A DNA stretch of 45,000 nt from an uncultured SAR116 cluster alpha proteobacterium. Its GTDB lineage: Bacteria; Pseudomonadota; Alphaproteobacteria; Puniceispirillales; Marisalimonadaceae. The notes beneath the pieces are model-generated. The model was not told where the DNA came from. It worked only from the letters and a program-made list of their open reading frames with translations, and did no database searches. The stretch covers positions 1 through 45,000 of the forward strand of contig CACMYY010000004.1 in the NCBI GenBank assembly GCA_902618025.1, written 5' to 3'. A program made the translations under genes and the position numbers. Positions 3,233 through 45,000 of this stretch are shown here, in pieces (the stretch's first letter is position 1; each line of letters starts with the position of its first letter).

Positions 3233-3838
3233 ATGAAATTGTATTTTGCTCCTAACTCACGCGCAGTTAGGATAGCCTGGCTTCTTGAAGAATTAGGTAT
3301 GGAATATGAAATTGAAAAATATTCAGTAGGCGATAAAGCTCTTAGAACTCCAGAATATTATAAATTACATCCTATGGGAAGAGTTCCTGTACTAGAAGAT
3401 GAGAATATAAAAATTTATGAGTCTGGTGCAATTGTGGAATACCTATTATCTAAATATGATAAAGGTAAATTTTGTCCTGACAAAACAGACCCAACCTTTC
3501 CTTATTATCTACAATGGCTTCATTATGCTGAAGGCTCAATCATGCCACAAGTTAACACAATTGTTGTAGAGACTATCTTACTACCTCCTGAACGAAAGAA
3601 CGAAGTTAACGTTGCAAGAGCTTTTAAACTTTTAAATGTTGCACTATTAAACGTAAATAATAACTTAGAAAATAAAGACTTTTTAACTGGTACATTTTCT
3701 GGAGCTGACATAATGACAGGACATGCATGTATAGGGGCAAAAAGAGTAGGTGCAGACATTTCAGATTTAAGTAATGTAGAAAAGTATATTGATCGTTTAT
3801 TGTCTAGGCCTGCATTGCAAAAAGCTATAAAAATTTAA
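3233..3838 (+). CDS. Glutathione S-transferase family protein
   Basis: 201 residues, the usual GST length. The N-terminal thioredoxin-fold half begins KLYFAPNSRAVRIAWLLEELG, with the cis-proline loop MGRVPVLED and the glutathione-contacting ES in IYESGAIVEYL. The helical C-terminal half includes the conserved FLTG.FSGADI segment (N-capping box and Asp). Cytosolic GSTs conjugate glutathione to electrophiles or carry out thiol chemistry; no substrate can be assigned. The start is fixed by a strong GGAGG upstream of the ATG. It is convergent with the acyl-CoA dehydrogenase gene, the two stops being only 5 nt apart. An all-A/T palindrome spans both stops. Confidence 0.9.
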   Translation: MKLYFAPNSRAVRIAWLLEELGMEYEIEKYSVGDKALRTPEYYKLHPMGRVPVLEDENIKIYESGAIVEYLLSKYDKGKFCPDKTDPTFPYYLQWLHYAEGSIMPQVNTIVVETILLPPERKNEVNVARAFKLLNVALLNVNNNLENKDFLTGTFSGADIMTGHACIGAKRVGADISDLSNVEKYIDRLLSRPALQKAIKI

Positions 3839-38682: not shown

Positions 38683-38718
38683 ATAGTTGTTTGCGGGAGT
38701 AGGATTTGAACCTACAAC
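38683..38718 (-). repeat. Diverged copy of the tRNA-fMet 3' end (candidate att remnant)
   Basis: This 36-nt stretch matches 40897-40932 at 33 of 36 positions. On the minus strand it reads a perfect T-arm (GTAGG-TTCAAAT-CCTAC) and a TCCCGCA acceptor strand followed by AACA. No anticodon arm precedes it, so it is not a tRNA gene. It lies on the far side of the cyclase paralogue from the longer tRNA-fMet fragment, as expected for an older integration scar. Confidence 0.75.
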
Positions 38719-38806
38719 TAGAGAGGCATACCAGATAATAAATTGTCATATAGTGCTATATTTATAAGGGTATGATAGTCATAAAGGTTTTTACTGTGTC
38801 ATACGC

Positions 38807-38840
38807 ATTTTGAGAACAGATCAGGAAATTTTGAGAACAG
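38807..38840. repeat. 13-nt direct repeat ATTTTGAGAACAG
   Basis: Two exact copies at 38807-38819 and 38828-38840, spaced 21 bp start to start, in the gap between the tRNA-end repeat and the cyclase stop. Two-turn spacing could suit a protein-binding site; its function is unknown. Confidence 0.6.
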
Positions 38841-38883
38841 GCTATTGACTAGTGTAAATGACAGTCGATAAGCAGACTAAATA

Positions 38884-40737
38884 TTAGGTTAATCCTAGTG
38901 AACTGAGCTTATCAATGAGCTCGTCTATGAAACCTTTATTTTTAAGCATACTTAGCTCTCCTCTTATTCTCTTAGCACTTTTTCCTTTTCCGTCTTCACT
39001 TTTTTGTTTCTCAAACAATTCCTTTGCTTTTTTTTCATTACCCCGTTTCTTATTAATATATGCTGAAAGAAGATACATGGTTTGTGAAAATCCTCCGAAA
39101 GCATGATCTTTCTGCAACTCAATTTCGAAAAACTTCAATGCTTTATCAAAGTCACCGCTCTCTACCAGAGCATAACTATATAAGTTCCTTGCCCATGAAG
39201 AAAAATGTGGAGCATTGTTTAACACATATTCATAATTCGCTATGGCTGAGACTAAATCTCCACAGTTTTGCGCTCCAGCAGCTCCCAAAGCCGTATCAAA
39301 TATTGTTACTGAATGCTGGAAGATTTTATCAACTTTTTTGCAGGCTTCATTATGATTTCCCATCATCAACTCGAGTGAAAGTTCCAGTGATAGAGCAGGA
39401 GCATGTGTTGGACGAATTGACAAAGCCTTTTTAGCAAGCTTTAAGCCTTGTTGAATATCGTCTCTTGGGTTATCCGAGATCCTCAAAACTATTTTTTGCC
39501 AATAAACCCAACCTAAACTATTGATGAACCTGATATTCTCAGGCTCTCTTTCTAATCCCTTTCTCCAAATGTTCTCTGCTTCTTTATTCGATGCACGTGT
39601 ATTTTTTGCAAAAAGCGATTGTGCTTTAATGTGCAACTTATATAGCTCAGGATCATTAGAAGCTAATTCAGGACGTGCGTATTTTGATGTTATTCGCGTA
39701 GCTTTTAGAATAGAGAGAGCAATTTCATCTTGAAGATCAAACACGTCTTTTGTTTCATCGAAATCGTATATATCAGAGAAAAGTATGCTTTCTTTATTCA
39801 GATCTGTCATTTCAACAGATACTCTAATTTTACTTCCTGCTCCCTGTACACTACCCCTTAAAATAAAGTCAAAACCATATTTTTCACGAATTTGGGTATT
39901 TTCGTAATTATTTTTAGAAATGAAGTTTGTAGTGCTAGAAGGAGAAACTTTGACGCTTTGGGTACTATTTAATACTGAACGAATGCTTGTTGTAATTCCA
40001 TTTCCTAAGAACTCATTATCCTCATCTTTAGTTAAATTCTCAAAATTCATAACTAAAATAGATGGTTTATCGGCTGATGCTATAGGTTTTGAATCATTCG
40101 AAGAATTTTGAAAAATGGTAAAATAAAACACTCCAACTATTACAACTAAAGCAGCAGCAACTGCCCCCAGTATAGTTAGCATAGAGCCAGTCTTTGTTTT
40201 TAATTTTCTCTTTTGCGAAGGATCAAGAAGGATGTCAAAGGCATGAAACTCATTTTGCTTTACCTTTTGTATGCCCAAATCGTTAAACGTGATCTTGGTT
40301 TTGGAAACAACGAGGTTATACACACTTTTGGATATAGAGATGCCATTCGCCTGGGCTAATGCTTCTAATCGTGCTGCAATGTTTACACCATCACCAAAAA
40401 GATTTCCCTCTTTCTTAACAACATCACCCATATTAATGCCAATGCGGAACTCAAGCTTTACCTTTGTTTTATCGGATTCATTTCTTTTCTTTATATAATT
40501 TTGAAACGCAACACCGCATTCAACAGCATTTACTGCACTTGGGAACTCCGCTAAGGCTGAGTCACCAGCTGTATTAAATATAGATCCTTTGTATTTCTTG
40601 AGACATGTTTTGAGTATTTCCTCACATTCGGCATAGGCCTTTAGCGTAGCATTCTCATCTCTTTCCATGTGCTTGGAATAACCAACAACGTCTGCAACAA
40701 GGATTACAGCTATTTTACGATCTATTTCGGTGTCCAT
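38884..40737 (-). CDS. Class III cyclase with TM segment and TPR-like sensor (paralogue B, probably acquired)
   Basis: 617 residues. The cyclase domain (1-175) is closely similar to paralogue A, with D16, D59 and the same Asn55 in place of the substrate Lys. A membrane helix lies at about 187-209, followed by a FlgO/TolB-like region (IASADKPSILVMNFENLTKDEDNEFL) and TPR-like helices (IRFINSLGWVYWQ, SIRPTHAPALSLELSLELM). Its DNA is visibly less AT-rich than that of paralogue A and uses more C/G at third positions, and the gene is bracketed by two copies of a tRNA-fMet end. These facts suggest acquisition from a relative. Likely makes cAMP in response to a periplasmic signal. Confidence 0.9.
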   Translation of the reverse strand: MDTEIDRKIAVILVADVVGYSKHMERDENATLKAYAECEEILKTCLKKYKGSIFNTAGDSALAEFPSAVNAVECGVAFQNYIKKRNESDKTKVKLEFRIGINMGDVVKKEGNLFGDGVNIAARLEALAQANGISISKSVYNLVVSKTKITFNDLGIQKVKQNEFHAFDILLDPSQKRKLKTKTGSMLTILGAVAAALVVIVGVFYFTIFQNSSNDSKPIASADKPSILVMNFENLTKDEDNEFLGNGITTSIRSVLNSTQSVKVSPSSTTNFISKNNYENTQIREKYGFDFILRGSVQGAGSKIRVSVEMTDLNKESILFSDIYDFDETKDVFDLQDEIALSILKATRITSKYARPELASNDPELYKLHIKAQSLFAKNTRASNKEAENIWRKGLEREPENIRFINSLGWVYWQKIVLRISDNPRDDIQQGLKLAKKALSIRPTHAPALSLELSLELMMGNHNEACKKVDKIFQHSVTIFDTALGAAGAQNCGDLVSAIANYEYVLNNAPHFSSWARNLYSYALVESGDFDKALKFFEIELQKDHAFGGFSQTMYLLSAYINKKRGNEKKAKELFEKQKSEDGKGKSAKRIRGELSMLKNKGFIDELIDKLSSLGLT

Positions 40738-40837
40738 TGTTTAACAGTATTTATAGTTAACGTATTTTACAACCAAGATTTAAAAAACCTGACGACCGGT
40801 TGGCATGATGGTTGATATAAAGAATGAAAATTACAAC

Positions 40838-40869
40838 AAAAAAAACCTCAAAACCCGAAGTCTTTGAGG
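40838..40869 (-). terminator. Intrinsic terminator downstream of the tRNA-fMet fragment
   Basis: On the minus strand, CCTCAAA(G) pairs with (T)TTTGAGG around a TTCG-containing loop and is followed directly by a run of eight T's. It lies about 30 nt after the tRNA 3' end, the position expected of the native tRNA-fMet terminator. This implies that the left side of the junction is the original chromosome. Confidence 0.75.
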
Positions 40870-40901
40870 GTGCTCTAAGTCATTGATTTTATTGATATAG
40901 T

Positions 40902-40953
40902 TGGTTGCGGGGGTAGGATTTGAACCTACGACCTTCAGGTTATGAGCCTGACG
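40902..40953 (-). tRNA. Truncated 3' part of initiator tRNA-fMet(CAT); attachment-site remnant
   Basis: Read on the minus strand: anticodon stem-loop TCAGG-CTCATAA-CCTGA, variable loop AGGTC, T-arm GTAGG-TTCAAAT-CCTAC, acceptor strand CCCCGCA, discriminator A and encoded CCA. Sequence and anticodon match bacterial initiator tRNA. The 5' acceptor strand and D-arm are missing; nothing matching TGCGGGG lies upstream. It is therefore not a working gene, but the displaced native end left when an element integrated into tRNA-fMet. The element should extend rightwards, past the window end, to an intact copy. Confidence 0.8.
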
Positions 40954-40983
40954 ATTACTAAGGAAACCAACCATTACAGAAGG

Positions 40984-41040
40984 TGTTTAGCTATAAGTTT
41001 CGCTATAGAATAGGATTTGCTAAAAATTTATAGCTAAACA
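40984..41040. repeat. 13-bp inverted repeat with 31-nt loop at the island edge
   Basis: TGTTTAGCTATAA at 40984-40996 and its exact complement TTATAGCTAAACA at 41028-41040. It lies between the tRNA-fMet fragment and the first island genes. It may be an integrase or excisionase binding site, an RNA hairpin or an element end. Confidence 0.7.
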
Positions 41041-41067
41041 TCTTTGCCTGACGTTTTTTTTTGTAAA

Positions 41068-41084
41068 GTTATGATGCCTGACGA
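41068..41084 (-). repeat. Second tRNA-fMet anticodon-arm-like segment
   Basis: GTTATGATGCCTGACGA matches the anticodon arm region at 40939-40954 except for one inserted T. The heptamer CCTGACG also occurs at 40788, 40947 and 41047. A partial core repeat at this place fits a nested or repeated integration event at the same site. Confidence 0.45.
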
Positions 41085-41109
41085 ACTGGGAAATTTTATT
41101 GAAATAACT

Positions 41110-41421
41110 TTAGTCTTCAATTTCATCATAGTTAATTTCAAATATAGCTTCATTGTTATTTTCTGTTTCTGGCGATAACTCTATTTCAAAAAAGTACTCT
41201 TCATCGTCATAGTGTGATTTAACTGGTGTATGACTTTTTTTTTGTACTAAATAATCTTTAATTTTAACAATATTTTTCCTATTTACATTCATTAGTTTAG
41301 ATAAAGAGATTTTTTTAGAAACTTTATGATTTTTAAGTAATCTAATAGACTCTTTTAAATTTAGCTTGCCAAATTTATAATCCTTCAAAATGGATTGCTC
41401 ATTCAAATATTTTGTTTTCAT
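41110..41421 (-). CDS. Hypothetical island protein with possible helix-turn-helix
   Basis: 103 residues: a Lys-rich, helical N-terminal half (LKESIRLLKNHKVSKKISLSKLMNVNRKNIVKIKDYLVQKK, residues about 21-61), which could form a helix-turn-helix, and an acidic C-terminal half (DDEEYFFEIELSPETENNNE) with many Glu and Asn. Such a basic-then-acidic protein could be a small DNA-binding regulator. I do not recognise a family. Its ATG follows the stop of the gene at 41422 directly, so the two are coupled. Together they diverge from the ATPase operon across the paired operator. Confidence 0.55.
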   Translation of the reverse strand: MKTKYLNEQSILKDYKFGKLNLKESIRLLKNHKVSKKISLSKLMNVNRKNIVKIKDYLVQKKSHTPVKSHYDDEEYFFEIELSPETENNNEAIFEINYDEIED

Positions 41422-41658
41422 CTAATTTCTAAATTGTTTTAATATTGATAATTTTGCAGCTTCCAAATTCCAAATTATATCCTTATCGTCATTATATGTG
41501 CTTAAGATGCTATATTCTTCAGTATTTGCAGTATTTTTCATCCCTACGATAATAATCTTATCACAGCTGTAAGCTGCATAATCACATATTTCTTTTACTT
41601 TTTGTCTTTCATCAATTTCATTTATTATTTTTATAAATATATTTTTATATTTTTTCAT
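41422..41658 (-). CDS. Small hypothetical island protein
   Basis: 78 residues. It contains two cysteines in KEICDYAAYSCDKIIIVGMK, followed by a strand and a C-terminal helix NLEAAKLSILKQF. It is the first gene of the leftward unit that starts opposite the paired operator; the gene at 41110 begins directly after its stop. No family is recognised. A two-gene unit of this size, divergent from an operator, might be a regulator with a partner or a toxin-antitoxin pair; the sequence does not decide. Confidence 0.5.
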   Translation of the reverse strand: MKKYKNIFIKIINEIDERQKVKEICDYAAYSCDKIIIVGMKNTANTEEYSILSTYNDDKDIIWNLEAAKLSILKQFRN

Positions 41659-41755: not shown

Positions 41756-41801
41756 ACACATTTGTCAAATGTGTGCACAAAATAAATATATTTGACAAAT
41801 A
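41756..41801. promoter_or_regulatory. Tandem palindromic operators (TTTGNCAAA core)
   Basis: The first dyad, ACACATTTG-T-CAAATGTGT, spans 41756-41774 and is perfect. The second, TATTTG-A-CAAATA, spans 41789-41801 and is perfect. Their centres are 30 bp apart, about three helical turns, so two repressor dimers could bind on one face. They lie between divergent units, and the second covers the -35 of the rightward promoter. Confidence 0.75.
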
Positions 41802-41820
41802 AAAAAAATAGCGTTAGTAT
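41792..41820 (+). promoter_or_regulatory. Sigma-70-type promoter of the ATPase operon
   Basis: A consensus -35 TTGACA (41792-41797), 17-bp spacer and -10 TAGTAT (41815-41820) lie 30 nt before the GTG start at 41850. The -35 sits inside the second palindrome, so a bound repressor would exclude RNA polymerase. Confidence 0.7.
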
Positions 41821-41849
41821 TTTAAAATAACACTTATGAGAGGTATATT

Positions 41850-42077
41850 GTGTCAAAAAGAGATAGCAGAGAAAGATTTAAATCTTTAGCTAACGTAAGA
41901 GTTAATAAAGCAATAAAAATTCTTAAACTTATAGGTAATTTATCTAATAAGCAGCATTATAGCTTTGATGATACTGATGCTAAGAAAATTATTTTAGCTC
42001 TGGAAAGTGAATTAAAAAACGTAAAACTTAAATTTAGCTATTCAAAAGAAAAAGATGGAGGTTTTAAAATTGAGTAA
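41850..42077 (+). CDS. 75-aa helical protein, first gene of the GHKL-ATPase operon
   Basis: 75 residues from a GTG start with GAGGT 7 nt upstream. The sequence begins RERFKSLANVRVNKAIKILKLIGNLSNKQHYSFDD, followed by a second helix (KKIILALESELKNVKLKF). I recall this short RFK-LA-R-N-A-ILGNLSN pattern from small proteins in accessory or defence-type loci, but I cannot name a family. It has no signal peptide and is all helical. It overlaps the next gene by 8 nt. A small accessory subunit or adaptor of the ATPase system is a reasonable guess. Confidence 0.7.
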   Translation: MSKRDSRERFKSLANVRVNKAIKILKLIGNLSNKQHYSFDDTDAKKIILALESELKNVKLKFSYSKEKDGGFKIE

Positions 42078-42750
42078 GAGCTTTTCATCAAAAAACGAAT
42101 TACCTAATACTAATTTTGTAGTGACTGTTTTATTTATTTTATTGAAAGAGAATCCTGGAAAAAAAATTAATACTGAGGATATTGCATTTAAATGTTTTCA
42201 AATGGCTCCACAAAAATTCTGCTGGAAAACAAAACCGGATTTGCCTGACATAGAGCCCGCTAGAAGAGGGTTGATGATAGCACGAAACAAACATCAATGG
42301 GTTTATGGTCATAGAGCAAGTGATATTGTTAAAGAGGGTTGGTCACTTACTGACATTGGTATTATTGAAGCAAAAAAATATCTAAATCTATTGGTTGCTG
42401 ATGAGCCTCTAATGGCTGAAAATAACAAGAATCAATATATAATAAAATATTTATCTAGAATAAAACAAAATAAGTTTTTTAAATTGTTTTTAAATGAACA
42501 AATTGAAGAAAACCTTTCAATATTTAAATTTCATGATCTTTCTACACTTTTAGAAACTTCTCCAAACAAAGTTAGAGTTAATGAGAGATTTCAAGACACA
42601 ATTAATTATGCAAGTACCTATGGCGAAAGTGATATTTTGTTATTCTTAAATTATCTTAAAGATCATTTTCCAGAATTTATTGACAGAAATATTTTAATTA
42701 AAGCTCATACAAAGACTGAAAAAGCGAAAAATAAAATTGAAAGGATCTGA
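42070..42750 (+). CDS. Winged-helix-like protein, second gene of the GHKL-ATPase operon
   Basis: 226 residues from a TTG at 42070, preferred over an ATG at 42055 because GGAGGT lies 8 nt before it, giving an 8-nt overlap with the gene before. The N-terminal 100 residues (VVTVLFILLKENPGKKINTEDIAFKCFQMAPQKF, then PDIEPARRGLMIARN and GWSLTDIGI) read as a winged-helix DNA-binding module ending with a wing-like W-x-L-T. The C-terminal half is helical and unfamiliar. Tight coupling with the ATPase suggests it directs the system to DNA or controls it. No nuclease motif is visible. Confidence 0.7.
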   Translation: MSKSFSSKNELPNTNFVVTVLFILLKENPGKKINTEDIAFKCFQMAPQKFCWKTKPDLPDIEPARRGLMIARNKHQWVYGHRASDIVKEGWSLTDIGIIEAKKYLNLLVADEPLMAENNKNQYIIKYLSRIKQNKFFKLFLNEQIEENLSIFKFHDLSTLLETSPNKVRVNERFQDTINYASTYGESDILLFLNYLKDHFPEFIDRNILIKAHTKTEKAKNKIERI

Positions 42751-42751
42751 T

Positions 42752-45000
42752 GTGAACCATATGCAAGTAAACAACGAAAAATTAGAAATAGATATAAGAT
42801 TAGCTCAAACAACAGCCTTAGCATCCATTAGAACTACAGTTGAAGCCTTGATAGAACTAATAACTAATGTAGACGACTCGTACGAAAGAATATCAATTAA
42901 AACTAATGAAAAAAACTATAAACATAAACCTTGTATCATTAACTATAAACTAGGTGGCAACAATGAACCTAGTTATCTTGAAATTTTAGACAGAGCAGAA
43001 GGTCAAACCTATGAAGAACTAAAAAGAAACTTGGTAATGGGAAGATATGCAAGTAATGAGTCATCAAGAGGTTTTTGGGGTAGAGGTCTTAAAGATGTAT
43101 CTGTCCATGGTGTGGTCACTCTTAAAACAATTAAAAATAATAAATATACAGAAGTCACATTTTCTTTAAATGATGGATCTAAAGACTTTAAATACAAAGA
43201 TCAGGTACCAAGTCCTAGTCAATTTAAAGATTTAGGTTTAAAGAAAAACAAGAACGGAACTAAGGTAGAATTCACAATAAATAAAGGAAGCATAACACAT
43301 TCTTACTATGAAACTTGTGTAAAAAATCTTCAAGCGCACTTTATGTTGAAAAATATAATGCATGAACAGAATGGCACCTTGAAAATAGTAATGAAGGATA
43401 TGAATAAGAAAAATGAGCAAAACACCTTAGCTTATAGGCCACCAAAATTTAAGAAAACCATTTTCAACGACTATATAACAAGTCAACAAATTGAGGAATA
43501 TAACAAATTTTATAAAACTCAACATAAGGTGCACTTTCAGTTGTATGAAATAGAGGAAGATGAAGCAGCAATTAGTGATACATCTATTTGTGGAATTTTC
43601 ATTGAAGGAACTAAGCAAGTATTTTGTAAGGATTTTTTTAATATTCAATCCCAAAGAACTAATAATAATTTTAAAAAAATTTACGGAATTTTAAAAACAC
43701 CCTTATTAGATGAAACCTTAAAGACCTTTAGAGATGGCCCTAATACTGATAATTTAAGATTAAACCCAACTCCATTATATGAACCCTCCAGAAGAGTTGG
43801 TGTGAATTGGGACCATCCATTAATCAAAAAAATCATTAAACAGCCTAAGTTAATCTTAGAGAATTATATGAAAAGTTTAGAGGAAAAATCAGAAAGTTTA
43901 TCGTTCAATAATTCCGCAAAAAAAATACTTAATGAAATCACCAATCTAATTGCAGATGAAATGAAAGATGTAGATTCTGAATTAAGTAATTTTGATAAAG
44001 GTAAAATTGATAAACTTAAGGTAGGGCAATGGTATGCTTTACCAAAGCTTATCAACCTACATCCAGATGAAGAAAAAACTATTTATGTCTATACACATAA
44101 AGATACACTTGAAAATTTTGATGAAGAGTTGATATTAAACATCAAAGAACAAGACAAATATTACTTAGATTGTACTAACATAAAATGTAAACCAATAAAA
44201 ACTAATAGTGAAGAGAAATACAGATTTGCATTTGATCTAAAGGCAGTTAAACCTAAAAATAATATTGAACTAAGTTTTTTTTATAAAACTGATACATCAA
44301 AAAAGACTGAACTCACAATAAATATAAATGATTATCAAGATCGTTTGTTTGCAACTCCACTTGAATTTGAACATTCCAACTACTCTGTTAAATATTTAGG
44401 TAAAAGATTAATCAAGGTTTTTCATAAGTATAATGTTGGAGACCCAATTAAAAAAGAGATTAATTATATTTCTGAGAATGAAAATATAGTGTCTTGTTCT
44501 GGAAAAACAGTTACTCTAACTAGATTTCATCAAACTAATTATCTAGTTGGTGAATTTGAAGTTAAAGGGGAATTTTTTGGAGAACAAACTAGATTATTAG
44601 CCGAAACGGATGAAACAAGTATTTCTTGCACAGTACATGTCGTAAATAAACAAGAAAATAATAAACATGACTATGACATTCAGTTATCAACTGAAGGAAA
44701 TGTTCGATATTATTGGGGTTTCAATGAAAGTGATTTAAATACTCTATACCTTTGTAAAAACCATCTTTCATTCAAATATACTTTTGATAAAGAGTCTGAC
44801 ATAAAAAGCATTATTAGCACTAAAGAAGGAAGAGTGTTTTATTGTGAATTGATTGCAGATGCAGTTGCTGATAAAAAAATCAAAAGTTTAATTGATAAAA
44901 GTCCAGTAGAGGAATTTAATAATCAATTAATTCTAGTTTCTGAAAGAATGACAATAATCAAGAATAATTTTATAGAAAAACTTTATAAATCTTTATTTAA
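42752..45000 (+). CDS. GHKL-type ATPase (MORC/Hsp90/MutL-like fold), C-terminus off the window
   Basis: At least 749 residues, starting at a GTG 1 nt after the previous stop, with AGGA at good spacing; an ATG at 42761 is the alternative. The GHKL nucleotide-binding pocket is visible: N-box EALIELITNVDDS (31-43, with N39 and D42), G1-like D80-x3-G84 in LDRAEGQ, and the lid G2 box RGFWGRGLKD (G107, G110, G112, K114). A second alpha/beta region and long Lys/Glu-rich stretches follow, with no recognisable histidine-kinase phosphoacceptor or topoisomerase domain. Such ATPases occur in R-M-like and other defence loci. The frame is open to the last base. Confidence 0.85.
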   Translation, partial: MNHMQVNNEKLEIDIRLAQTTALASIRTTVEALIELITNVDDSYERISIKTNEKNYKHKPCIINYKLGGNNEPSYLEILDRAEGQTYEELKRNLVMGRYASNESSRGFWGRGLKDVSVHGVVTLKTIKNNKYTEVTFSLNDGSKDFKYKDQVPSPSQFKDLGLKKNKNGTKVEFTINKGSITHSYYETCVKNLQAHFMLKNIMHEQNGTLKIVMKDMNKKNEQNTLAYRPPKFKKTIFNDYITSQQIEEYNKFYKTQHKVHFQLYEIEEDEAAISDTSICGIFIEGTKQVFCKDFFNIQSQRTNNNFKKIYGILKTPLLDETLKTFRDGPNTDNLRLNPTPLYEPSRRVGVNWDHPLIKKIIKQPKLILENYMKSLEEKSESLSFNNSAKKILNEITNLIADEMKDVDSELSNFDKGKIDKLKVGQWYALPKLINLHPDEEKTIYVYTHKDTLENFDEELILNIKEQDKYYLDCTNIKCKPIKTNSEEKYRFAFDLKAVKPKNNIELSFFYKTDTSKKTELTININDYQDRLFATPLEFEHSNYSVKYLGKRLIKVFHKYNVGDPIKKEINYISENENIVSCSGKTVTLTRFHQTNYLVGEFEVKGEFFGEQTRLLAETDETSISCTVHVVNKQENNKHDYDIQLSTEGNVRYYWGFNESDLNTLYLCKNHLSFKYTFDKESDIKSIISTKEGRVFYCELIADAVADKKIKSLIDKSPVEEFNNQLILVSERMTIIKNNFIEKLYKSLF

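What the first reader, a model, noticed from the sequence alone, without database searches (positions are those of the whole stretch)
41756..45000. Candidate undescribed defence-like operon: 75-aa protein, winged-helix-like protein and large GHKL ATPase
Three tightly coupled genes (overlap 8 nt, then 1-nt gap) under one repressor-controlled promoter encode a small helical protein, a winged-helix-like protein and a GHKL-fold ATPase of over 749 residues with intact N-box, G1-like and lid motifs but no kinase or topoisomerase partner domain. They sit just inside an island that has cut a tRNA-fMet gene. GHKL/MORC-like ATPases are established members of R-M-like conflict systems; this exact trio is not one I can name. 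Function in phage or plasmid defence is inference.
Basis: partly seen in the sequence, partly recalled or inferred. Interest (0 to 1): 0.82.

Follow-up and report, generated by a model that had tools for sequence, protein, structure and literature searches.

The report
GHKL ATPase trio in tRNA cassette
In a marine SAR116 bacterium a small mobile gene cassette lodged at a tRNA gene carries three coupled genes (a 75-residue helper, a DNA-binding-type protein and a large ATP-driven clamp-type protein) that look like a stripped-down relative of restriction-type phage-defence operons, and the small helper turns out to travel with several otherwise unrelated clamp-type proteins in widely separated bacteria.

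Summary
The trio is real: 75 aa (41850-42077), 226 aa winged-helix-like (42070-42750, 8-nt overlap), GHKL ATPase (42752 to past 45000, 1-nt gap). Profile comparison with shuffle controls supports the GHKL fold; no Pfam or PADLOC model hits it. One other SAR116 genome has the trio at the same chromosomal place (2 of 136 genomes of the order).

It is the cargo of an inferred ~4.2-kb cassette without a visible recombinase, joined to the 3' half of tRNA-fMet where SAR116 genomes stack such cassettes; two relatives show the empty site. The next 5 kb are withheld, but a 16S 5' end just beyond implies an rRNA operon, leaving no room for a nuclease or methylase gene.

Key result: the 75-aa protein is a recurrent partner. 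In 26 of 32 non-solo loci examined (four phyla) a GHKL-like protein starts within 1.5 kb downstream, in six groups not linked by BLASTP, including the PADLOC candidate PDC-M33, Gabija-adjacent operons and one operon with the same small-winged helix-GHKL order. DNA methylase is annotated in 7 of 11 plasmid regions.

Best reading: a minimal MORC/paraMORC-like conflict module, a new variant of a known kind.

The parts
41850..42077 (+). 75-aa basic protein, probably helical (GTG start); recurrent partner of GHKL ATPases
   Evidence: ORF; 61% identical in G023; family profile A7 found in 20 of 318 alphaproteobacterial genomes, own genome included, and on plasmids
42070..42750 (+). 226-aa winged-helix-like protein (TTG start, 8-nt overlap with gene 1)
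   Evidence: ORF; 38% identical in G023; BLASTP 36% over 104 aa, E=4e-11, to the second gene of the L149 small-wHTH-GHKL operon, 52.8 bits against 21.9 maximum in 100 shuffles. Winged helix is a sequence-pattern inference; the AF2 model (pLDDT 50.0) is too poor to confirm it
42752..45000 (+). GHKL (Bergerat-fold) ATPase, 749 aa inside the window, still open at 45000; inferred end within about 60-70 codons
   Evidence: ORF; motifs at residues 34, 80, 106 and 168; hhalign to GHKL domains with shuffle controls; 38% identical to the G023 homologue over 467 aa; end inferred from rRNA operon spacing
41760..41800 (.). two operator-like palindromes ATTTGNCAAAT (41760-41770 and 41790-41800), each over the -35 of one of two divergent promoter-like sites
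   Evidence: pattern count; promoter scan: + strand TTGACA 41792 / TAGTAT ending 41820, - strand TTGACA 41768 / TAGCAT ending 41740. Consensus matches only
41422..41658 (-). 78-aa ORF, divergent from the trio; weak PHROG 11040 match (E=1.6e-4, unknown function)
41110..41421 (-). 103-aa ORF following the 78-aa ORF; HTH-like by eye, no family
   Evidence: no homologue in the other loci held
40955..41098 (.). element end of type A (TATAGCTAAAC-like arm repeats), shared with cassettes of unrelated cargo
   Evidence: blastn to L040, L041, L046, L051 and the start of G023 contig 11 (L023)
40902..40952 (-). 3' half of tRNA-fMet (anticodon arm to CCA), the left junction repeat
   Evidence: Rfam tRNA hit 40911-40972, 31.4 bits; exact 47-mer shared with intact tRNA-fMet genes of relatives
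40785..40901 (-). region downstream of tRNA-fMet with a terminator-like hairpin (40846-40869), duplicated with the tRNA half in the arrays
   Evidence: blastn, terminator scan
38683..38715 (-). degraded tRNA-fMet remnant, probably marking an older cassette boundary
   Evidence: blastn-short 94% over 33 bp

Best explanation
The trio is a minimal conflict (defence-type) module of the MORC/paraMORC kind, carried as the whole rightward cargo of a small mobile cassette that integrates at tRNA-fMet. Shown here: one tight operon beside a tRNA-fMet junction repeat with an empty site in relatives; a GHKL-type domain with the N-box glutamate (E35 in IELITNVDDSYER; its catalytic role is recalled from the superfamily); a 75-aa partner seen with six groups of GHKL ATPases; a winged-helix-like protein found in the same gene order in another operon. 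Inferred mechanism: the ATPase dimerises on ATP binding and closes as a clamp on DNA; the winged-helix-like protein provides DNA contact or recognition; the small basic protein is a constant subunit that couples clamp closure to the rest of the complex. Because no nuclease or methylase gene appears to fit in the cassette, the trio would act either by holding and silencing invading DNA, as eukaryotic MORC proteins do, or through an unrecognised activity in the C-terminal half of the ATPase. The operator-like sites suggest that expression is kept low until needed.
For: Trio at the same chromosomal place in G023 with 62.5/38/38% protein identity, while the flanking M23 peptidase and ClpA are 71% and 82% identical. 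GHKL fold by profile comparison with controls. Small gene followed within 1.5 kb by a GHKL-like protein in 26 of 32 non-solo loci, 20 of them above the maximum of 210 shuffles (the 32 include the window and G023), in six groups not linked by BLASTP at E<=1e-3. One group holds the PADLOC candidate defence system PDC-M33; another adjoins GajA, E=2.9e-220, tested in L102 only. DNA methylase annotated near the small gene in 7 of the 11 plasmid regions fetched. Same order small-wHTH-GHKL in L149, whose GHKL matches HATPase_c_3 at E=2.9e-12 and, below cut-off, BbrUII/HgiDII restriction enzymes at E=6.3e-18. Empty site in G006 and G037.
Against: No Pfam, PADLOC, NCBIfam or PHROG model recognises any of the three proteins as defence (PADLOC copy of 2023). 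No methylase or nuclease in the readable cassette. Neighbouring cassettes look mostly metabolic. The trio is rare: 2 of 136 genomes of the order, none but the own genome in samples of 385 (class) and 398 (phylum) genomes. In 10 of 42 loci the small gene stands alone without a GHKL, and 6 of the 32 other loci lack a scored GHKL. The G023 ATPase taken alone scores only 22.0 against GHKL profiles, under the shuffle maximum of 23.6. No functional test exists.
Confidence: 0.55

Rival explanations
1. The trio is the ATPase part of a split restriction-type system: it needs a methylase and nuclease encoded elsewhere in the genome, as MutL works with MutH or Vsr, and does not act alone.
For: Relatives of the small gene lie next to Dcm, Vsr and restriction enzymes in many loci; paraMORCs are described as R-M components (PMC2292703).
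Against: A mobile cassette that depends on unlinked host genes would often arrive useless; neither SAR116 copy has such a gene in the readable part of the cassette. Whether this genome has such genes elsewhere was not searched.
Confidence: 0.2
2. The trio serves the cassette itself: DNA topology, stability or addiction (a toxin-antitoxin-like function) that keeps the element in the population.
For: It is the main cargo of a cassette without a visible recombinase; operator-like control suits a potentially harmful protein.
Against: Other cassettes with the same type A end carry unrelated cargo and no trio, so it is not a general maintenance gene of the element.
Confidence: 0.15
3. The small protein is a general DNA- or chromosome-associated protein and its closeness to GHKL genes reflects shared residence in islands.
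For: Ten solo copies in the same family, a copy before a GmrSD-type gene (L155), weak copies in cyanophages.
Against: Co-directional closeness, in most loci with overlap or a gap under 35 nt, to six unlinked GHKL groups in four phyla is hard to explain by chance residence.
Confidence: 0.1

Closest known systems
PDC-M33 (PADLOC phage defence candidate; GHKL-like A, B, DUF6339 C)
   Same: Operons begin with the same 75-aa small gene and carry a GHKL-like A gene, often with Dcm or Vsr. PADLOC-tested: L106 (A, B, C), L107, L112 and L148 (A); L116, L147, L151, L153, L154, L162-L164 belong by BLASTP linkage
   Different: Window ATPase not similar by BLASTP or by hhalign beyond chance; no B or C gene and no methylase in the window cassette. 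In L112 and L116 a Dcm gene stands between the small gene and A
small-wHTH-GHKL operon in L149 (identical DNA in L146, i.e. genomes G196 and G284)
   Same: Same first two protein families and same gene order
   Different: GHKL of 558 aa, BLASTP-unlinked to the window's, weakly like BbrUII/HgiDII restriction enzymes; next gene with RNA polymerase alpha-CTD-like and sigma region 4-like domains
Ensifer adhaerens plasmid operon (L101)
   Same: Small gene (49% identical), 800-aa ATPase with an in-register extended N-box, 229-aa protein collinear with the winged-helix-like protein
   Different: Order small-ATPase-229 aa; both similarities are weak (hhalign E 0.02-0.03 and 0.01, above their shuffle maxima); with the two-row profile the 229-aa link did not exceed shuffles
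MORC/paraMORC GHKL ATPases of R-M systems (Iyer et al. 2008, PMC2292703; parts 1-2 of 4 read)
   Same: N-terminal GHKL domain, lateral mobility, kinship of context
   Different: Strict MORC S5 motif absent; no helicase, methylase or nuclease in the readable cassette
VcSduA, Shedu with N-terminal GHKL (PMC12137116, passages read)
   Same: GHKL-headed protein in phage defence
   Different: No DUF4263 nuclease model matches the visible window ATPase
Additive flexible genomic islands with tRNA direct repeats (PMC7771536, PMC10872708, passages read)
   Same: Small gene cassettes bounded by repeats of a tRNA 3' end
   Different: Here the target is tRNA-fMet at the end of the rRNA operon; a term search of the main text of the SAR116 phylogenomics paper PMC8547437 found no 'genomic island', 'cassette' or 'direct repeat'

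Membership tests
GHKL superfamily | N-box, G1, G2 and G3 motifs in order | tested here: met
   IELITNVDDSYER 34, DRAEGQT 80, RGFWGRGL 106, NGTKV 168; same order in G023. Motif names recalled; G1 has A for the first G
GHKL superfamily | Profile similarity to known GHKL domains | tested here: met
   hhalign score 39.7, E 2.2e-5, probability 76%, shuffle maximum 20.6 of 60; window alone 35.2 against maximum 23.6 of 210
GHKL superfamily | Match to a curated HATPase model | tested here: not met
   No HATPase hit at E<=1 or E<=10 on fragments
GHKL superfamily | Bergerat fold in a structural model | tested here: inconclusive
   AF2 mean pLDDT 30.8, unusable
MORC | GhXhhpXXRhl motif in the S5 domain | tested here: not met
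   Strict motif absent; relaxed GIFIEGTKQV at 281, conserved in G023
MORC/paraMORC R-M systems | Operon with helicase, methylase or nuclease | tested here: inconclusive
   None in the readable cassette; 45001-50000 is withheld, and an rRNA operon is inferred to fill it
PDC-M33 | A, B and C models hit | tested here: not met
   No PADLOC hit for the trio at E<=1; on fragments and G023 proteins only noise at E<=10
Shedu (GHKL type) | DUF4263 nuclease | tested here: not met
   No Pfam match; the last residues are unread
BbrUII/HgiDII restriction enzymes | NCBIfam NF050001 match | tested here: not met
   No match for the window ATPase at E<=1; the L149 relative matches at E=6.3e-18, far below cut-off
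tRNA-bounded cassette (additive island) | Direct repeat of a tRNA 3' end at the junction | tested here: met
   3' half at 40902-40952; the intact copy on the right lies in the withheld stretch and is inferred
tRNA-bounded cassette (additive island) | Empty site in a relative | tested here: met
   Window 38683-40954 aligns to G006 L052 1354-3625 at 95.4%, ending inside its intact tRNA-fMet (3573-3649); likewise G037 L056 at 95.9%
Tycheposon | Element with its own tyrosine recombinase | tested here: not met
   No ORF between 40955 and 45000 matches one; of 2 integrase matches in G000 one is listed, at C4:70554, and the second row was not shown

The most novel reading that the evidence does not exclude
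The 75-aa protein is a general, so far unnamed subunit of bacterial GHKL clamps, and the SAR116 trio is the smallest such machine: a nuclease-free and methylase-free ATP-gated DNA clamp with a winged-helix reader that silences or entraps foreign DNA, a bacterial counterpart of eukaryotic MORC silencing, spread as cargo of mini-cassettes at tRNA-fMet.
Probability: 0.2. Interest if true: 0.82.

Novelty: new variant of a known kind. Interest (0 to 1): 0.6.

Why it matters
A recurrent small partner across six groups of GHKL ATPases gives a handle to find and group conflict systems that current models miss: PADLOC recognised some of these ATPases (L106, L107, L112, L148) but not others tested (window, L101, L102, L105, L150, L152, L157), and neither of the two small proteins tested (window and G023). 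If the trio works without nuclease or methylase, it would make the question of how MORC-type clamps restrain foreign DNA testable in a three-gene bacterial system. The locus also shows how streamlined ocean bacteria shuffle gene cassettes at tRNA-fMet behind the rRNA operon.

Tried and rejected
Homologues of the ATPase by sequence: plasmids and phages by tblastn, viral contigs, genome contigs (only G023's contig found), class and phylum samples: nothing but G023 and the own genome. Plasmid tblastn with the winged-helix protein, viral-contig scans with the winged-helix alignment and the two-row small-protein alignment, and phage tblastn with the G023 small protein found nothing. The small protein was then found with plasmid tblastn and genome profiles.

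AlphaFold models with two-row alignments were too poor (pLDDT 30.8 and 50.0), so no fold search was run. PDB sequence searches gave no credible relative.

Direct profile links of the window ATPase: to PDC-M33A not above shuffles (15.6 against a maximum of 26.4); to the Gabija-adjacent group slightly above (24.5 against 21.3); to the Ensifer ATPase slightly above (25.6 against 23.8), 40 shuffles each. The search for the Ensifer ATPase in 376 genomes of the class was empty, and the tool warns that this shows little. A first hhalign attempt used loci in the wrong orientation (score 25.2) and was redone.

Considered and rejected: histidine kinase or topoisomerase subunit (no such model hits); defence by location alone (cargo of neighbouring cassettes looks mostly metabolic).
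Full report
Observation. The three genes are at 41850-42077 (GTG, 75 aa), 42070-42750 (TTG, 226 aa) and 42752 to beyond 45000 (GTG, 749 aa visible), with an 8-nt overlap and a 1-nt gap. The window is the first 45000 bases of contig C4 (70922 bases) of a 1.55-Mb genome, 75% complete. Its genus includes G023, whose contig has the same length and match position as the SAR116 record AG-896-N20.

What lies to the right. C4:45001-50000 is withheld. Directly after it a 16S 5'-end motif on the minus strand is visible at C4:50081; Rfam does not report so short a piece. It is followed by genes that I read as M23 peptidase, ClpA, PrmC, PrfA, HisS and IspG. In G023 the trio is likewise followed by a withheld stretch, then 23S, tRNA-Ile and 16S (Rfam) and the same M23 and ClpA genes. 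In four relatives the distance from the 16S motif to the 5' end of tRNA-fMet is 4790-4828 bases (a fifth locus gave no motif). This puts tRNA-fMet at about 45253-45291 (3' end 45177-45215). If this genome's operon has the usual length, the ATPase must stop within about 60-70 codons and no further gene fits before tRNA-fMet. In G023 the same calculation allows at most 793-806 residues.

The cassette. The left junction is the 3' half of tRNA-fMet. That half, with up to 3 mismatches, occurs in 37 of 58 genomes of the family; by my count of that listing 16 of 58 have two or more on one contig. Of 20 further loci mapped, 6 (L052-L056, L058) have a single intact tRNA-fMet and 14 hold remnants, 9 of these with an intact tRNA-fMet too; successive copies are about 1.3 to 17.6 kb apart. 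ORFs of 12 arrays were listed; by my reading of the translations the cargo looks mostly metabolic or transport, but only three of these proteins were run against Pfam. The repeat unit reaches about 100 bp past the tRNA and includes a terminator-like hairpin. The bases just inside the junction fall into at least three families of element ends. The window's end matches seven of the 30 other ends (one of the 30 is counted twice): L046, L040 (two, one by 14 bp only), L041 (two), L051 and the start of G023 contig 11. Window 38683-40954 aligns at 95.4% with G006 and 38818-40954 at 95.9% with G037, in both ending inside an intact tRNA-fMet: the empty site. No ORF in the readable part of the cassette matches a recombinase.

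Regulation. ATTTGNCAAAT occurs twice in the window (41760, 41790); simulations gave a mean of 0.475 and a maximum of 2 in 40 runs. Each copy overlaps a TTGACA of one of two divergent promoter-like sites; the region holds 16 such sites against 9.8 expected, so these are consensus matches only. The leftward side encodes 78-aa and 103-aa ORFs of unknown function.

The proteins. Family libraries gave nothing for the trio above noise. The ATPase has N-box, G1, G2 and G3 motifs at 34, 80, 106 and 168, conserved in G023. hhalign of the two-row N-terminal profile against seven GHKL domains (one MutL-like, one HtpG-like) gave score 39.7, E 2.2e-5; 60 column shuffles reached at most 20.6; the middle and reversed parts scored 12.8 and 14.5; against eight MutL domains 27.7 (shuffle maximum 20.5) and against a mixed set 36.4 (maximum 25.7). 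The strict MORC S5 motif is absent; a relaxed form is conserved at 281. Structure models failed.

The trio elsewhere. In the order, 2 of 136 genomes have the ATPase: this one and G023, at the same place beside the rRNA operon, with identities of 62.5, 38 and 38% against 71 and 82% for flanking M23 and ClpA. Nothing but the own genome was found in 385 class and 398 phylum genomes, and nothing in plasmids (ATPase; winged-helix protein), phages or viral contigs. The first-look limits make these weak negatives.

The small protein is the marker. tblastn with the G023 copy found plasmid relatives. A two-row profile found it in 18 of 136 order genomes at E<=0.1, 13 of them (own genome included) at E<1e-8. 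A 12-row profile found it in 20 of 318 class genomes. I examined 42 loci that carry it. Not fetched: 5 of the 16 plasmid records (three near-duplicates, one Rhizobium, one Vescimonas), 6 of the 20 genomes (G065, G122, G199, G298, G321, G379, weak matches) and 5 of the 18 genomes (E 0.026-0.056). Ten of the 42 are solo copies in the same family without a GHKL downstream. Of the other 32, which include the window and G023, a co-directional protein of 300 aa or more starting within 1.5 kb scored above the maximum of 210 shuffles (23.6) against GHKL profiles in 20, and between the 99th percentile (21.1) and that maximum in 6 (L006, L106, L107, L147, L162, L164). Five of these six are linked to PDC-M33A by BLASTP or PADLOC and the sixth is the G023 ATPase. 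In most loci the GHKL gene is the very next one; in the window, L006, L146 and L149 the winged-helix-like gene lies between, and in L112 and L116 a methylase gene. The remaining 6 are L103 (no long ORF), L155 (GmrSD-type), L158 (fragmented), L159, L161 (small gene itself a fragment) and L165 (IS insertion). L146 and L149 are identical DNA, and L102, L104 and L105 are close relatives, so the loci are not all independent. All-against-all BLASTP of the 26 ATPases gives six groups (12, 5, 4, 2, 2 and 1 members).

Neighbours. PADLOC names L106 as PDC-M33 A, B and C and L107, L112 and L148 as PDC-M33A. The protein beside the L102 operon is GajA at E=2.9e-220, followed by an annotated UvrD helicase; L104 has the same annotated pair. 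A DNA methylase is annotated in 7 of 11 plasmid regions (L101, L103, L106, L107, L162-L164). Vsr is annotated in L107, L162 and L164, and Shedu in L163 and L164. In chromosomal loci methylase-like genes are my reading of motifs.

The same architecture. In L149 the order is small, winged-helix-like, GHKL (HATPase_c_3 E=2.9e-12; BbrUII/HgiDII-like E=6.3e-18 but below cut-off), then a 600-aa protein. Its second gene matches the window's at E=4e-11, 52.8 bits against 21.9 in 100 shuffles, and the G023 protein with 33.9 against 22.3. The Ensifer operon has small, 800-aa ATPase and a 229-aa protein. A three-row winged-helix profile scores 23.5 against the latter over 119 collinear columns, maximum 18.3 in 60 shuffles, while the two-row profile did not exceed its shuffles (16.2 against 19.1).

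Interpretation. The facts fit a conflict module related to MORC/paraMORC and restriction-type GHKL systems, reduced to three proteins. The clamp mechanism is inferred from MORC and MutL biology (recalled, and abstracts). That the module defends against phages or plasmids is inference from the company its relatives keep.

Literature. Passages or parts were read from PMC2292703 (parts 1-2 of 4, plus a term search), PMC12137116, PMC10872708, PMC7771536, PMC12421898, PMC8547437 (passages) and PMC8011034 (outline and passages). A search for PDC-M33 or DUF6339 found no paper. Searches on GHKL defence, paraMORC and PADLOC candidates listed none that I recognised as describing the 75-aa partner; the library holds open-licence papers only, the lists were capped, and I read only those named.

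Noticed in passing
window 17600-40954; L039-L051 (SAR116 relatives): Much of the window's right half matches DNA that lies between or beside tRNA-fMet remnants in relatives, so the window seems largely part of a shuffled cassette array.
   Followed up: partly
L023, L039-L051, window 40955-41098: At least three families of element ends (arm repeats like TATAGCTAAAC; CCAACCA with ATGGCAGAACTCTGCGGAAAAGAGTCA; GTGGCTAAC with CAAAAATGGGGCAAAAATGTCA) share one attachment site, suggesting that several recombinases use the same tRNA-fMet.
   Followed up: partly
L108-L111, L113-L115, L117-L119: Ten loci of the same family have a solo copy of the 75-aa protein; in 8 of the 10 it lies within a few bases of a contig end, as if a repeat or hypervariable sequence adjoined its 5' side.
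   Followed up: no
L041:13611-16115: The cassette next to intact tRNA-fMet in G029 carries a DUF4379 treble-clef protein (with a sub-threshold REase_MTES_1575 match) and a PLD-like protein, possibly a restriction-like pair.
   Followed up: no
L166:4989-5267: Cyanophage S-CRES1 has a weak relative of the small protein (38% over 60 aa, E=3e-7) in a run of short hypothetical genes.
   Followed up: no
L155:7844-10070 (minus strand): In one genome the small gene precedes a GmrSD/DUF262-type protein instead of a GHKL ATPase.
   Followed up: no
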